Virus record (IMG/VR): IMGVR_UViG_3300026484_000266
Coordinates: 1-23,886 of that record
DNA length: 23,886 bases
Direction: 5' to 3' (one strand)
Origin: a virus
In this document: piece by piece, positions 1 to 23,886 of the stretch
How positions within the stretch are numbered: the stretch's first letter is position 1
How the letters are laid out: each line of letters starts with the position of its first letter
Notes under the pieces: model-generated
The model's database searches: none
What the model was told of the DNA's origin: nothing
The model's input: the letters and a program-made list of their open reading frames with translations, nothing else
Made by a program: the position numbers and the translations under genes

Positions 1-62
1 CTATAAAAGAATAAAAGACGCTTAGAAGACGAATTAGATAGTTGTATAGAGTATTGTATAGA
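1..62. repeat. 62-bp direct terminal repeat, left copy
   Basis: Bases 1-62 are identical to bases 23825-23886. This fits a circular molecule read past its own start, or short direct terminal repeats. The repeat lies in non-coding AT-rich DNA and includes the first iteron-like motif at 45-54. Its motifs also recur inside the adjacent region, so collapse or false closure on a repeat during assembly is possible. Confidence 0.95.
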
Positions 63-503: not shown

Positions 504-995
504 ATGAAATGTGATGTAGTATTAGGATTAGACATTAGCTCAACTAATACAGGAGTCTGTCTTCTTGATTTAGAAGGCAATTATCTTTTTAGCTATTTGA
601 TTAAAAGTAAAAAGAAGGATTTTGAAGAAAGAGTAATTGATATAGGTGAAGAATTATTTATTATAGTAGATAGTATAGGAGATAAAATAAAAGCAATAGG
701 GATTGAAAGTGTTAGTTTTTTTAGTAAGGGTAAAGTAGCACAACTTGCAATGCAAAATGGTTATTACTTTTATACATTGAAAAATAAAGGTTATAATGTT
801 AAAACATATACTCCAAGTAGTATAAAAAAATTTTATTGTGGAAATGGTAGAGCTAAAAAAGAAGATATGTTAAAAAATACACCAAAAGATGTTATAGAGG
901 ATTTTTTATTAGTTGATAATAAAAAGATTGATGATTTAGTAGATGCTTATGCAATTGCAAAATTGACATTAAAAAGTTATAAGGAGAATGTATGA
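504..995 (+). CDS. ruvC: RuvC-like Holliday junction resolvase
   Basis: This is a 163-aa RNase H-fold endonuclease of the RuvC type, the usual length for the family. It would cut four-way DNA junctions during recombination or clear branched DNA before packaging. The acidic catalytic set is visible: D10 in LGLDISSTNTG, E69 in IGIESVSFF, and D144 and D147 in KIDDLVDAYAIA, which match the D-E-D-D arrangement of RuvC. The segment TPSSIKKFYCGNGRAKKEDM corresponds to the DNA-contacting region with its conserved G-x-G-x-A-x-K pattern. Start: ATG at 504 with GGAGG upstream. Its last four bases (ATGA) overlap the start of the metallophosphoesterase gene, so translation is coupled. Family assignment is from motifs; whether it acts on phage or host DNA is not shown. 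Confidence 0.88.
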   Translation: MKCDVVLGLDISSTNTGVCLLDLEGNYLFSYLIKSKKKDFEERVIDIGEELFIIVDSIGDKIKAIGIESVSFFSKGKVAQLAMQNGYYFYTLKNKGYNVKTYTPSSIKKFYCGNGRAKKEDMLKNTPKDVIEDFLLVDNKKIDDLVDAYAIAKLTLKSYKENV

Positions 996-2251
996 AGGAA
1001 ATTATAAAAAGAATAGAAGAACATTATCAAATAAAAATAGATGATTTTTTAGAGTTATATGAACTTGGTTATGGTAGAGAAGATATTGCTCTAAAATTAG
1101 GTATAGGGGTTATGCCTGTTAGACAAATAGCCGCAAGTTTAGGTTTGAGATTAAAGAAAAAGCATAGAAGTACTGATTTAGATATTTTAAAAAGAAGATT
1201 AGAAAACGAAAATGATTTGATAGTTCAACTTACAAATGATTTAGAGTTTATGAATGAAAAAGCTTTAAAATTACATAAAAGTTTAATTAAATGTAGAGAT
1301 GAAAATAGTTTTTTAAGAAAACAAATTAGATTAAGTGCAAGAGAGGAGAAAGTATTAGAAGAAATAAAAGAAGAATTAAAAAAGATAACAGAAGTAAAAG
1401 TAGAACCTATTATTTTGGAACATAATTCTCCATACTTTATACCTAATGGTTTAAATTTAGTTGTACTAAGTGACTTACATATAGGTGCAAAAGTGGAAAA
1501 AGAAAATGTGGGAGATATGAATGAATTTAATTATGAGATAGCTATAAAAAGAATTGATATTGTTTTTGATAGATTAGTAAGAATGTCTTATCAAAGTGAA
1601 AACTTAACAATTGCTATTTTAGGTGATATATTTGATGGGATAATCCATGGAAGTCAATTGATTGCTGAAATGCCTGTAACAAAAGCAATTGCTCAATTTT
1701 CAGCTTATATAGTAGCAAAGGTGAAAAGTTTAAGTAAGATATATAAAAATATAACATTAGAAATTATTTCAGGTAATCACGAAAGATTATTTGATAATCC
1801 TGTTACTATCCACAAACCTTATGATTTTAGTCATATATTTTATGAATTAGTTAAAACACAATTAATTAATGTAGCAGAGGTTAATTATGCTTTTAAAGGG
1901 TATCATAGAATAAAATTACCAAATAACAAATGGGCTTTTGCATTTCATGGAGATATGAATAGAAAATATTCACCTTTTAAAGAAGCAGAAGTATTAAAAG
2001 CTATACAATTAGCAAAACAAGTGTTTGGGATAGAGCCTTATTTGATTTTATCAGGACATTTACATAAATATATGAAAAGTATGCTTCCGAACGGAGGTTT
2101 TGCAATAGGTGTAGGGAGTTTAATGGGGACTAATCAATATAGTTACAATAATGGATGGCTATCAAGTATTCCTTCACAAGTTATTTTATTTTTAAACGAA
2201 GAAGGGGAAGTTGAAAAGGAAAAAGTAATAATTTTAGATAAAATCTCTTGA
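992..2251 (+). CDS. HTH plus metallophosphoesterase protein
   Basis: This 419-aa protein has three parts. Residues about 20-56 look like a helix-turn-helix (GYGREDIALKLGIGVMPVRQ), about 64-135 is a charged coiled coil, and about 150-400 is a calcineurin-like metallophosphoesterase. The metal-binding motifs appear in order: D161-x-H163 (SDLHIG), G211-D212 (GDIFDG), G261-N-H-E264 (SGNHER), H319-G-D321, and G355-H-x-H358 (SGHLHK). The set is complete, so the enzyme is probably active as a phosphodiesterase or nuclease. The HTH suggests it is brought to DNA, and the coiled coil suggests it oligomerises. It overlaps the RuvC gene by 4 bp (ATGA) with AAGGAG upstream. Its stop codon overlaps the -35 box of the next gene's promoter. 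The exact substrate is not evident; an SbcD- or Mre11-like role in DNA processing is one option. Confidence 0.88.
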   Translation: MKEIIKRIEEHYQIKIDDFLELYELGYGREDIALKLGIGVMPVRQIAASLGLRLKKKHRSTDLDILKRRLENENDLIVQLTNDLEFMNEKALKLHKSLIKCRDENSFLRKQIRLSAREEKVLEEIKEELKKITEVKVEPIILEHNSPYFIPNGLNLVVLSDLHIGAKVEKENVGDMNEFNYEIAIKRIDIVFDRLVRMSYQSENLTIAILGDIFDGIIHGSQLIAEMPVTKAIAQFSAYIVAKVKSLSKIYKNITLEIISGNHERLFDNPVTIHKPYDFSHIFYELVKTQLINVAEVNYAFKGYHRIKLPNNKWAFAFHGDMNRKYSPFKEAEVLKAIQLAKQVFGIEPYLILSGHLHKYMKSMLPNGGFAIGVGSLMGTNQYSYNNGWLSSIPSQVILFLNEEGEVEKEKVIILDKIS

Positions 2252-2276
2252 CAAAAAGAAAAGTTTTGTGTATAAT
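2248..2276 (+). promoter_or_regulatory. Perfect consensus sigma70 promoter for the Csx20-like gene
   Basis: TTGACA (2248-2253) and TATAAT (2271-2276) match both consensus boxes exactly with a 17-bp spacer. The -35 box overlaps the upstream stop codon. ACAAAA (2251-2256) and TTTTGT (2264-2269) form a small dyad within the spacer that could be an operator. The expected start near 2283 gives a short leader with AAAGGAG before the ATG at 2309. Confidence 0.88.
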
Positions 2277-2308
2277 ACCATTACAAAAACAAAACAAAAG
2301 GAGTTTGA

Positions 2309-2710
2309 ATGAAAAAAGCATTAATCATCTTGAACCATAACCCAGCAAAAGAGCTTACAGAAGATTTATATAAAAACTATGGTGTAGAAGAGGTGGCAAC
2401 TTTAAAGGAAGTTGCGCCTGAATTGTCTATAAAATTTTCCCAAATTCCAGTGGAGTATAAAACTCCATATGAATTACAAAATTATATTATTAATGATATA
2501 GTTAGGTTAGTAGACGATAAGGGATATGATTTAGTTGTAGTTTCTGGTGAACCAGTGACTTGTAAATGGCTTACAATTACTCTTGAAGAGGGACTTGGAG
2601 TGAAAAGTTACGCCCCTCTTAGTAGGAGAGAAAGTGTAGACGTAGAGCAACCGGATGGTTCGGTTGTAAAAAAATCAGTGTTTAAATATGCTGGTTTGAG
2701 AGAGTTTTAA
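2309..2710 (+). CDS. csx20: Csx20-like protein, putative ring nuclease (anti-CRISPR candidate)
   Basis: This 133-aa protein resembles Csx20, a family associated with type III CRISPR and predicted to degrade cyclic oligoadenylate second messengers. Three segments support this. The N-terminus KKALIILNHNPAKELTEDL leads into YGVEEVATLKE. A central strand-turn reads YDLVVVSGEPVTCKWLT (residues 73-89). The C-terminus has ARRE-like LSRRESV (104-110), then PDGSVVKKSVFKYAGLREF (115-133), which I compare from memory with a family ending near SVFKHVRFREY. Here Y replaces His and G replaces Arg in that motif, so the protein is divergent and activity is unproven. Context is telling: a perfect consensus promoter, its own terminator, and no cas genes nearby. 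Inference: a phage counter-defence enzyme. Start: ATG at 2309 with AAAGGAG upstream. Alternative: an unrelated Rossmann-like protein. Confidence 0.65.
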   Translation: MKKALIILNHNPAKELTEDLYKNYGVEEVATLKEVAPELSIKFSQIPVEYKTPYELQNYIINDIVRLVDDKGYDLVVVSGEPVTCKWLTITLEEGLGVKSYAPLSRRESVDVEQPDGSVVKKSVFKYAGLREF

Positions 2711-2723
2711 ACTCTCTGTTTTT
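2699..2723 (+). terminator. Intrinsic terminator after the Csx20-like gene
   Basis: AGAGAGTTT (2699-2707) pairs with AAACTCTCT (2709-2717), and TTTTT follows at 2719-2723. The hairpin overlaps the stop codon at 2708-2710. Together with the promoter at 2248 it makes this gene a self-contained unit. Confidence 0.75.
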
Positions 2724-2758: not shown

Positions 2759-2965
2759 ATGCTTTTACAAAAATTGGAAAAAATAAAAGAAATTGTGGAA
2801 AAAAGCCATAGTGAAATATATGAATTAAAAGAACTTGTAGAAGAAAGGGAAAATTTGTGGGAAGAATTATATAAAAACGAAAGCATTATAAATTTAGAAA
2901 AATTAGAAAAATATTTAAATTACGCATTAGACGAGATAGAAGAATTTCTGTCTAAGAATTCTTAG
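2759..2965 (+). CDS. Small coiled-coil protein, 68 aa
   Basis: I do not recognise the family. The protein is almost entirely helical and charged, with a heptad-like pattern of Leu/Ile among Glu and Lys (for example LQKLEKIKEIVEKSHSEIYELKELVEE). This suggests a coiled coil that dimerises or binds a partner. It has no transmembrane segment or cysteine. The start at 2759 has AAAGGAGAGATAA directly before ATG. The upstream palindrome TATAAAATTTTATA (2729-2742) and this ribosome-binding site are nearly the same as those before the tail chaperone gene at 16290. Its TAG stop (2963-2965) lies in the palindrome that also holds the stop of the converging endolysin gene. It is the last gene of the rightward block. 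Confidence 0.75.
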   Translation: MLLQKLEKIKEIVEKSHSEIYELKELVEERENLWEELYKNESIINLEKLEKYLNYALDEIEEFLSKNS

Positions 2966-2970
2966 ACAGA
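2947..2970. terminator. 24-bp palindrome between converging operons
   Basis: TCTGTCTAAGAA (2947-2958) is followed directly by its exact reverse complement (2959-2970). The centre contains the overlapping stop codons of the rightward and leftward blocks (TAG 2963-2965 on +, TAA 2964-2962 on -). T-rich sequence follows on the + side (attgttttcttttatt). It is probably a bidirectional terminator. Confidence 0.7.
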
Positions 2971-3597
2971 GTAATTGTTTTCTTTTATTTCCGCTATCTT
3001 TTTAAGGCTTTTATTAATTCTGTTTTTCCATGCTTGATAAAATACAATCTTTTGAGGCTTATTTAAAATTTCTTCCAATAATTCTTGTTCTTGTAAAAGA
3101 GTTAACCATTTTAAAATAAAATCTTCATTTAATTTATTTAACTCTTTTAAAGTGCCTCTGCCAATAATACCATCTTCTTTAATCAAAGGATAGTCATTTA
3201 ATCTTTCTTTTTCTAAATTAATTGCTTTTTGTAAGTGTAATGCACCTTTTCTTCCTGTCCCAAGTAAAACACTCTGTTCTAATAATTTTGCTCCAATTTT
3301 AAAAGGAAGTTTATCACCATTAAATTTATTCCAATAATTCTTTTTATAAAAATTTTTTACCATTTCTTGTAATTCGTAATTTAAAACTAATTGTTCATTC
3401 AATTCTTTTTTGGATTTTTTACTACCATCATACCCCATGTATGTTTTTATACTATCTATAATATCCCATCCTTCCCAAGTAGGATACCACCTTCTACTAA
3501 TCCCCTTGTATGTTTCTTTCCCTTCATCCAGAGGATTGTCTGCGTATCCACCTTCCGCAAGTTCTAAAATTTTAAAAGCTAAATTAAATTTATTCAT
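2962..3597 (-). CDS. Endolysin, glycoside hydrolase family 108 muramidase
   Basis: This 211-aa protein would cleave the glycan backbone of peptidoglycan at the end of infection. The GH108 signature is at the N-terminus: ILELAEGGYADNP (residues 10-22) with E15 in the catalytic position, then DEGKETYKGIS. A C-terminal peptidoglycan-binding region follows (about 117-160), including ALHLQKAINL and IKEDGIIGRGTLKELN. The length fits complete family members. No signal peptide is visible, so release to the periplasm should need the holin. The gene starts 8 bp inside the 3' end of the holin gene, giving a coupled holin-endolysin pair at the end of the late operon. Its stop lies in the palindromic terminator at 2947-2970. 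Family identification is confident; specificity was not tested. Confidence 0.92.
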   Translation of the reverse strand: MNKFNLAFKILELAEGGYADNPLDEGKETYKGISRRWYPTWEGWDIIDSIKTYMGYDGSKKSKKELNEQLVLNYELQEMVKNFYKKNYWNKFNGDKLPFKIGAKLLEQSVLLGTGRKGALHLQKAINLEKERLNDYPLIKEDGIIGRGTLKELNKLNEDFILKWLTLLQEQELLEEILNKPQKIVFYQAWKNRINKSLKKIAEIKENNYSV

Positions 3598-9920: not shown

Positions 9921-12900
9921 TTATTCCTTCCTCCTCAATTTTTTGTAAAAGTCTATGCATTTTTTGTTGCACTATCAATTGTTCTTTTAATAATGTATTT
10001 GTTGTTTGTAATTCTTTAATGCTTAATTCATAGGACATTAAATTTACTTGTACTGGTTGTGTTACAATTGTAGGAATTTGTAAATTTCCATTTATCCTTC
10101 CATTTTCTAACCATTTAAATAATTCAGGATACCTTTTTAGCATCCATTTAGGAGCAACCCATTCATTTTCATGAACTACCCCCGCAACTTTTTCTCCTGT
10201 TGCATCTTTATAAGTCCCCGCTCCTGTATATCCACCTTCTGCAAAGCCGAATTTATGAAATACTCTATGGATACCATGTGTAACTGAATGTGTAAGACTA
10301 TGTACATTTTTAATTGCATTTGTTACAATATGTCCTGTTAATGCTAAAACATTTCCTCCAATATTTGCTAAACCTCCTTGCAACGTGCTTAAAGAATTTT
10401 TAATAATACCTATTGCACTTTGTACTACTGTTTTTAACAAATCATCAAATTTCCCACTAAAAGTACTTAACATAGTAGATAAAGTAGAAGTTATTTTTCC
10501 ACCAATATTATTTAATCCTAAAAACAAAGGCTTAAACCAACCAAAGAAACCTCTTAACATAGTAGATAAAGTAGAAGTTATTTTTCCACCAATATTATTT
10601 AATCCTAAAAACAAAGGCTTAAACCAACCAAAGAAACCTCTTAATGTATCTAAAATAGCACGAGTAATGTCTAACATAGGGAATAAAATATTAACAATAT
10701 CAGTCATTTGTGAATTTAAAGTTGTAGTTAAAAATCCTAATAACTTTTCTACTAAATTTCTTGTGTCTTTTATTACTTCCAAAGTTTTTAACTCAGGGTC
10801 TTGTAATGCCTCAACTTGTGCGTCTGGTAAAGCAATAGCATTTGAAGTATTTTCCATAATTGCTTTCAAATAGTCTTTTGTACTCATTTGTTTTATATTT
10901 TCTAACGCTGTAATAATCTTATCATTAGCTTTTATTCCGGCCGCTTCTTGATAAGCTTTAACTCTATTTAAAAGCTCATCATAACTAATACTTCCTTTTT
11001 CATACTCTTGAATTGCTTTTGCGGCATCTGCTTGTAATGTTATTTCATCAGAACTTGTATCTTCTCCAATACCTTTTTTTAAAGTTACGATATATTTTGT
11101 TAATGAAATATTAGCCTTATTTTGTTGTGTAATTAATTTAGATACTATTTGTATGCTTTCTTTTAATTTAGAATTTAATGCATCAACAGCAATACCATAT
11201 TTGTTTAAATTTTTAAAATCTGTCAATTTATTTATATCTTGTGTAGTTGCTATTATGCTTTCTACTGCTTTTTTACTTTGTGCTAAAATATTTTGAACCA
11301 ATTCCGTTAAACCATTTTTACTTAAATCATCAGTGTATTTTTTTACTTCTTCAATAGCTTCTTTTCTTCTTTGTAGAGCATAAGTATTAGTGCCTGTAAT
11401 TTCATCATAAATATTACGATAATCATCTATATTCTTATAAATAGAATTTGCTAAGTCTACTAAATCATCAACAAAAGTTTGAAGCGCTTGTTTCATATTT
11501 TCAACAGATTGTACAAATTCTTTTTGAAAAGTAGTAAATCCCGTAGCTTCATCCGCCCATTTTTGAGCGTTCATAGCCATGTTTAAACCTTGTAAAACAG
11601 CCCCACCATCAAACCAAGCCGAAGCTGTAAAACCAGCGGCAATACTTCCAGTCTCCAAAGCAGTTTGAATATTTTCTTTATATTTTTTTGAACGCTTCAT
11701 TAATTCATAATTTTGTAAATATGTTTCTTTTTTAGCGTAAAAATCTTTCAAATCACTTTTAAGTTTTGCTAATTGTCCAAAGCCCTCATAACCAAAAAGA
11801 GTATACACTTTACTTCTAAATTGTTCATCTCTACTTTGTTTGTTATACATATCAATATGTGGTTGATAATGTTTTCTAATTAAATTGTATTGATTTTCAA
11901 ATAATGTACTTAATAATTTTTGTGTATTAGTTACTAAAAAACCAGCTATTGCACCTTCTTTTCCATAATTTTTAGCTAAGTGTTTACTTACCCCAGTAAA
12001 AAATGAATTAAAATCATTACTATTCATAAAAATCATTAAAGCAGAAGCAAAATTCTTTGCACTTTCTTTTCCAAAGGACTTAGCTAAATCTTTATAAGCT
12101 TTATAAGTGTTATCATCAAACCCTAATTGTTTTTGTTCTATTTTTTCTAATTGCCTAGTATTCCAAGCATCCAAATCTTTCAAAGCTTGTTTCAATTTTT
12201 CCCCACTAAAACCAGCTTCAATTGCTTTTTTCTTTATCTCATATGCTTTTGCTTGTGCTCCATATAAATCAGTAGGGGTTAAAGCTTTCTGAATTTCTTT
12301 ATAAGCTTTTTGAGCTTTCTTATATAAGTTATCATAAGCTTTATTTTGTTTATTTAAAATTTCAACTTTTTTACTTTCATAAACAAGATTTAATTCATTT
12401 AATGCTTTTTGTCTTAATAAAACATCTTGAATTTGATTTACTTTTTTTAGTTGTTGTTGATACCATTCTTTTATTTTTTCATTATCAGGCAATACATTAA
12501 TATAAAGATTATGAATTTGTTGATATAATGCTAAATCATTATTTTTTGTATTTTTTATAGTACTTCTTGTATGCCTTGCACTTTTTTGTTTTTCATGTAA
12601 TCTTAATCTTAATTGCTCTAATTTAACAATTTTTTGATAAAAAGAATATAATTTTTCAACAACAATTAATTCTTCTTTATTTAAAGATTTCCCTTTAAAT
12701 ACTCCTGTTGTTAAAATTTTTTGTAATTCCGTTGAAGCTTTTAAAGGGTCTTTACTTTTTACATCCTCATACAAAGAAGTTTTAAAATGCTTACTAACTT
12801 CTTTTATTTCTGTTAAATATTTACTAATAGCTTTTTGTTGTCTATTTATAAATTTATCTAAAATACTATTTAATTCAACAATTTCTTTTTTATCAATCAT

Positions 12901-19120: not shown

Positions 19121-19167
19121 AAAATATTTTATTGTAACAATTTTAAGTTCTTACAATAAAATATTTT
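19121..19167 (-). other. 17-bp-stem hairpin next to the tRNA-like sequence
   Basis: AAAATATTTTATTGTAA (19121-19137) pairs perfectly with its complement at 19151-19167 across a 13-base loop. On the - strand it starts at the last base of the tRNA-like CCA and ends 2 bases before GAGGAGG of the 77-aa gene. It may be a 3'-processing or mRNA-stabilising structure, or a weak terminator ending in ATTTT. Confidence 0.7.
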
Positions 19168-19238
19168 GGCTGGGTAAGTCTCTAACCTACGACCTAATGG
19201 TTAACAACCATTCGTTCTACCAACTGAACTACTACCCA
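19167..19238 (-). tRNA. tRNA-Asn (GTT)-like sequence, T-arm/acceptor damaged
   Basis: The - strand reads as a tRNA-Asn. D-arm stem GTTC/GAAC has the usual AGTTGGTA loop. The anticodon stem AATGG/CCATT holds a TTGTTAA loop with anticodon GTT. CCA is encoded at the end, and TGGGTAG can pair with TTACCCA. It is 72 nt with CCA, about 4 nt short. If the acceptor pairs fully, the T-stem GTAGG/CTTAC cannot form as well, because they share TTAC. The loop TTAGAGA also lacks the usual C56. A slip deletion between TACC repeats would explain this. It may be a pseudo-tRNA or an unusual functional one. It is in late-operon direction, between capsid and connector genes. Confidence 0.6.
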
Positions 19239-23824: not shown

Positions 23825-23886
23825 CTATAAAAGAATAAAAGACGCTTAGAAGACGAATTAGATAGTTGTATAGAGTATTGTATAGA
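23825..23886. repeat. 62-bp direct terminal repeat, right copy
   Basis: Identical to bases 1-62. Removing one copy gives a circle of 23,824 bp. The text stops inside the iteron region, so the second motif (57 in the left copy) is cut short here. Confidence 0.95.

What the first reader, a model, noticed from the sequence alone, without database searches (positions are those of the whole stretch)
2309..2710. Phage-carried Csx20-like protein: candidate anti-type III CRISPR ring nuclease
Seen: a 133-aa protein whose N-terminus (KKALIILNHN), centre (VVVSGEPVTCK) and C-terminus (SVFKYAGLREF) follow a pattern I associate with Csx20, and no cas genes nearby. Known: Csx20 is a type III CRISPR accessory predicted to degrade cyclic oligoadenylates, and viruses use the unrelated AcrIII-1 for this. 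Inference: a second, independently recruited phage ring nuclease. The C-terminal motif differs at a His and an Arg position (as I recall the family), so it could be inactive or have altered specificity.
Basis: partly seen in the sequence, partly recalled or inferred. Interest (0 to 1): 0.9.

Follow-up and report, generated by a model that had tools for sequence, protein, structure and literature searches.

The report
Phage-carried relative of ring nuclease Csx20
A bacterial virus carries, on its own switch-on unit, a small gene related to Csx20, an enzyme that bacteria use to turn off a CRISPR alarm signal; the virus probably uses it to silence that alarm, an idea already published for a few other phages.

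Summary
It falls below the family's curated cut-off (41 of 70 bits), so I file it as a viral branch of the Csx20 superfamily, not as Csx20 proper. It keeps the residues invariant in all 49 aligned relatives (H10, G80, R107, F125). The gene is a moron-like unit: the window's only perfect sigma-70 promoter precedes it, a terminator follows it, and a phage about 80% identical in most structural proteins lacks it. No Cas10 gene is present. Relatives occur in Campylobacter and Fusobacterium phages and at 40 IMG/VR loci. Best reading: a cA4 ring nuclease acting as an anti-type III CRISPR protein; activity is untested. Novelty is limited: Csx20 was shown to cleave cA4 and was reported in four phage genomes in 2025 (PMC12409355). 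'Independently recruited' is not supported: on the tree the viral proteins lie together.

The parts
2248..2276 (+). perfect sigma-70 promoter TTGACA-17 bp-TATAAT, driving the Csx20-like gene
   Evidence: 12 of 12 match; the only one in 23.9 kb, 0.03 expected by chance
2300..2303 (+). ribosome binding site GGAG
   Evidence: read from the sequence, 5 bases before the ATG
2309..2710 (+). viral Csx20-like protein, 133 aa; candidate cA4 ring nuclease / anti-type III CRISPR
   Evidence: NF040559 E=1.8e-10, PADLOC Csx20 E=1.2e-9, hhalign to CRISPR-linked Csx20 96.7%, AF2 pLDDT 96
2699..2722 (+). intrinsic terminator overlapping the stop codon (stem 2699-2717, then T run)
   Evidence: -9.0 kcal/mol, z -2.0
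2759..2965 (+). 68-aa coiled-coil-like ORF of unknown function; lies in the same stretch that relative G300 lacks
   Evidence: only weak library hits; G300 comparison
2946..2971 (.). strong hairpin at the convergent boundary, probably a bidirectional terminator
   Evidence: z -3.5
992..2251 (+). left neighbour: metallophosphoesterase/exonuclease-like phage protein
   Evidence: phrog_284 E=3.9e-38, PF00149
2962..3597 (-). right neighbour: GH108 endolysin
   Evidence: PF05838 E=2.1e-15, phrog_315

Best explanation
The gene is a phage accessory ('moron') gene encoding a viral member of the Csx20 superfamily. Most likely it is made early from its own consensus promoter, forms a CARF-like dimer, binds cyclic tetra-adenylate made by a host type III CRISPR Cas10, and cleaves it to linear products, so that cA4-activated effectors (Csx1, Can/Card and the like) stay off and infection proceeds. 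Shown here: homology, conserved core residues, a confident Rossmann/CARF-like model, autonomous transcription signals, gain/loss among close relatives, no Cas10. Inferred: dimerisation, cA4 binding and cleavage, early expression, anti-CRISPR role, and a host with a cA4-signalling type III system.
For: Csx20 family hits and profile-profile matches. H10, G80, R107 and F125 are kept and invariant in 49 relatives, and R131, invariant in cellular Csx20, is also kept. AF2 model pLDDT 96, pTM 0.86; its PDB neighbours include cA4-bound Cam1 CARF and Csm6, and a viral relative's model also matches ring nuclease Sso2081/Crn1, all at weak E-values. Csx20 cleaves cA4 in vitro (PMC12409355). Own promoter and terminator. 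Absent from a relative about 80% identical in most structural proteins. No Cas10 in the window or in 43 related records. Related genes in a Campylobacter Mu-like element just after a MuB-like gene (L013), a C. fetus phage/plasmid beside holin and endolysin (L006, L012), large Fusobacterium phages and many IMG/VR contigs.
Against: Score below the NF040559 cut-off (41.2 of 70 bits). Y127 and G129 differ from cellular Csx20. Foldseek matches to CARF proteins are not significant (E 0.01-0.04), and general Rossmann folds score alike or better. The host and its defence content are unknown. No activity data.
Confidence: 0.6

Rival explanations
1. cOA sponge: the protein binds cA4 tightly but cleaves it slowly or not at all because of the altered C-terminal motif, and protects the phage by sequestration.
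For: Y127 and G129 replace H/F and R; Csx15, a CARF relative, is a good cA4 binder and a very slow nuclease (PMC13148439).
Against: Phe at 127 in five of eight cellular Csx20s; R107 and H10 kept; PMC13148439 argues that sponging is ill suited to the large amounts of cOA made by type III systems.
Confidence: 0.15
2. It degrades or binds another defence nucleotide (such as cA3 of CBASS) rather than type III cA4.
For: Csx20 at high concentration also degrades cA3 (PMC12409355); the viral branch has a distinct pocket signature (A/E81-P82, S105, G129).
Against: Cellular relatives are linked to type III loci; no evidence of CBASS linkage was sought or found.
Confidence: 0.12
3. A phage protein of the same fold with an unrelated nucleotide-binding or regulatory role, not counter-defence.
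For: Weak structural matches to many Rossmann folds; the viral branch is widespread and divergent.
Against: Retention of the core motif residues; isolated accessory cassette with its own promoter, absent from a close relative.
Confidence: 0.13

Closest known systems
Csx20 (NCBIfam NF040559), CRISPR-associated cA4 ring nuclease
   Same: Full-length homology, CARF-like topology, H10/G80/R107/F125, C-terminal F-x-[HF]-x-x-[FL]-R-x-[YF] frame
   Different: Below the curated cut-off; Tyr at 127 and Gly at 129; encoded by a phage with no Cas10 gene
Csx20 in four phage genomes (Hoikkala et al. 2025, PMC12409355)
   Same: Same kind: phage-borne Csx20 homologue
AcrIII-1 / Crn2 (DUF1874, PF08960)
   Same: Proposed role: viral cA4 ring nuclease
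   Different: Unrelated family; PF08960 has no match in the window or in 24 related records
AcrIII-2 (viral SAVED) and Crn4b
   Same: Other viral ring nucleases, so the strategy is known
   Different: Different families per the published reports (PMC12751052, PMC12830947)

Membership tests
Csx20 (NF040559 equivalog) | score over the curated cut-off of 70 bits | tested here: not met
   41.2 bits, E=1.8e-10; the viral relatives scored are also below it
Csx20 superfamily | significant full-length profile homology to CRISPR-linked Csx20 | tested here: met
   hhalign P0001 vs A5 96.7%, E 4.6e-10; clade A6 vs A5 98.5%, E 1.7e-15; 25.3 bits vs 7.5 for the best of 2000 shuffles
Csx20 superfamily | residues invariant across the family (H10, G80, R107, F125) | tested here: met
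Csx20 (cellular) | H or F at position 127, mostly R/K at 129, R131 | tested here: not met
   window has Y127 and G129; R131 met
Csx20 (CRISPR-associated) | gene lies in a type III CRISPR locus | tested here: not met
   no Cas10; neighbours are phage genes
CARF/Rossmann ring nucleases | CARF-like fold | tested here: inconclusive
   confident Rossmann-like model but Foldseek E to Cam1/Csm6/Crn1 0.01-0.04
Ring nuclease | cleaves cyclic oligoadenylate | not testable with these tools
   needs an HPLC assay
AcrIII-1 (PF08960) | PF08960 domain | tested here: not met
   no match in the window
Anti-CRISPR | protects phage or plasmid from a type III system | not testable with these tools
   needs a plasmid-challenge or phage assay

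The most novel reading that the evidence does not exclude
The window protein belongs to a large, mostly unrecognised viral branch of the Csx20 superfamily, including an 'NLTQH...AMIGGAP...DGSVxKxxVFxHxGF' clade at 40 IMG/VR loci (contigs of 402 kb and 269 kb, and one 150-kb contig with two copies), with no matching PHROG for the members tested and scores below the Csx20 cut-off; it may be a widespread class of viral cA4 ring nucleases missed by current models, with the cellular Csx20 possibly derived from it or the reverse.
Probability: 0.45. Interest if true: 0.65.

Novelty: new variant of a known kind. Interest (0 to 1): 0.5.

Why it matters
If active, it adds a viral branch of Csx20 to the few known phage enzymes that erase the type III CRISPR alarm, and it suggests that such enzymes are more common in uncultivated phages than the four Csx20 cases reported. 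The branch gives concrete, small, testable proteins, and shows that current family cut-offs miss viral members.

Tried and rejected
Single-protein pattern scans of viral and genome contigs with the window or Fusobacterium protein found nothing; alignment or clade-specific queries worked. Pfam and PHROGs give no family for the protein. No solved structure is a sequence relative. AcrIII-1 rejected. 'Inactive because His is missing' rejected as a conclusion, because five of eight cellular Csx20s have Phe there. 'Independent recruitment by this phage' rejected on the tree, with the caution that several branches are long. Host: 13 of 18 phage records with the tail protein name Campylobacter, Helicobacter or Nitratiruptor, which suggests but does not prove a Campylobacterota host. 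An alignment mixing cellular and viral sequences (A1) was too diverse for a contig scan.

Full report
Observation. The ORF 2309-2710 (+) encodes 133 aa and contains the three motifs quoted. It matches NCBIfam Csx20 NF040559 over residues 5-133 with E=1.8e-10, 41.2 bits, under the curated cut-off of 70, and PADLOC Csx20 with E=1.2e-9, plus the Csx15/20 and CARF-HEPN-Csx20 models. Against an HMM built only from eight cellular Csx20s it scores 25.3 bits, against 7.5 for the best of 2000 shuffles and 6.9 for the best other window protein. The similarity is real.

Context. The window is a virus record with portal, protease, capsid, tail, holin and endolysin genes and no Cas10. The gene lies between a RuvC/metallophosphoesterase pair and the lysis genes. 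It has its own consensus promoter, TTGACA-17-TATAAT at 2248-2276, the only perfect one in 23.9 kb (0.03 expected), and a terminator hairpin over its stop codon. A related 60.8-kb phage (G300) is about 80-90% identical in most head proteins and in the two left-hand neighbours (lower in some head-tail and tail proteins). It has no match to P0001; its metallophosphoesterase gene ends 28 bases from its holin-like gene, where the window has the Csx20-like gene, a 68-aa ORF and the endolysin. This is the anatomy of a moron gene.

Relatives. Fusobacterium phages JD-Fnp4, 6 and 7, a C. fetus phage/plasmid element with the gene near holin, endolysin and DUF1353 as in the window, and a Campylobacter Mu-like element with the gene just after a MuB-like ATPase gene carry homologues at 25-35% identity. 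A clade with an NLTQH start is found in Rhodothermus phage RM378, a Phocaeicola MAG contig with phage genes, plasmids of Azotobacter, Aromatoleum and Caminibacter, and 40 IMG/VR loci, some of them duplicates of one another. No Cas10 was found in 43 of these and related records. Profile comparisons join the window clade and the NLTQH clade to cellular Csx20. In the tree the window groups with the Campylobacter phages (99/96) and all viral proteins fall on one side of a branch (87/84) from the cellular ones; long branches make the deeper placement unsure.

Active-site reading. In 49 aligned sequences H10, G80, R107 and F125 are invariant and kept in the window protein. Position 127 is His in three and Phe in five of eight cellular Csx20s, His in the NLTQH and Fusobacterium groups, Phe or Tyr in Campylobacter phages, and Tyr here. 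R131 is invariant in cellular Csx20 and kept here, though lost in nearly all other viral members. Of the five Phe-type loci, four have cas or type III effector genes beside them by PADLOC (Cmr6 for L027, Csm5 and Cas6 for L029, a CARF-PDDEXK effector for L030, Cas1 for L031); L028 showed none. So the Tyr is not evidence of inactivity; specificity may differ.

Structure. AlphaFold2 with 25 permitted relatives gives pLDDT 96 and pTM 0.86, a Rossmann-like sheet with a long C-terminal hairpin. PDB neighbours are weak but include the CARF proteins Cam1 and Csm6; the model of a viral NLTQH relative (pLDDT 97) matches Cam1 and ring nuclease Sso2081/Crn1 among its first five hits, also weakly. This agrees with the published DALI match of Csx20 to Sso2081 but does not prove the fold family on its own.

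Prior knowledge. Csx20 degrades cA4 in vitro and, at high enzyme, cA3; it is the commonest ring nuclease in type III loci and was reported in four of 28,114 phage genomes (PMC12409355). AcrIII-1, AcrIII-2 and Crn4b are other viral ring nucleases (PMC12751052, PMC12830947). The idea in the finding is therefore already in print in outline; what is added is a new divergent member with moron anatomy and evidence for a broader viral branch.

Verdict. A viral Csx20-superfamily protein, most likely a cA4 ring nuclease used against type III CRISPR (0.6). Not Csx20 proper by the curated cut-off and genomic linkage. Activity, host and role are untested.

Noticed in passing
window 1-62 and 23825-23886: A 62-bp exact terminal direct repeat makes the record look complete, yet no terminase or replication gene was recognised, and a relative about 80% identical in most structural proteins is a 60.8-kb contig; the record may be a fragment or misassembly.
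   Followed up: partly
window 19166-19238: A tRNA-Asn (GTT) gene on the minus strand inside the head gene cluster.
   Followed up: no
window 10436-10609: An 87-nt tandem duplication inside the tape-measure gene.
   Followed up: no
L047, L048 (IMGVR_UViG_3300016457_000282): One 150-kb viral contig carries two copies of the Csx20-like gene in opposite orientation.
   Followed up: no
L069, L071, L016: Viral Csx20-like genes with an apparent internal deletion (L069), a frame break (L071) and an N-terminally shortened, unannotated copy in Pasteurella phage Pm86 (L016).
   Followed up: no
L073:4001-4486: An NLTQH-clade viral protein that keeps the cellular-type C-terminal motif (FRHLRFREC), a possible bridge between the branches.
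   Followed up: partly
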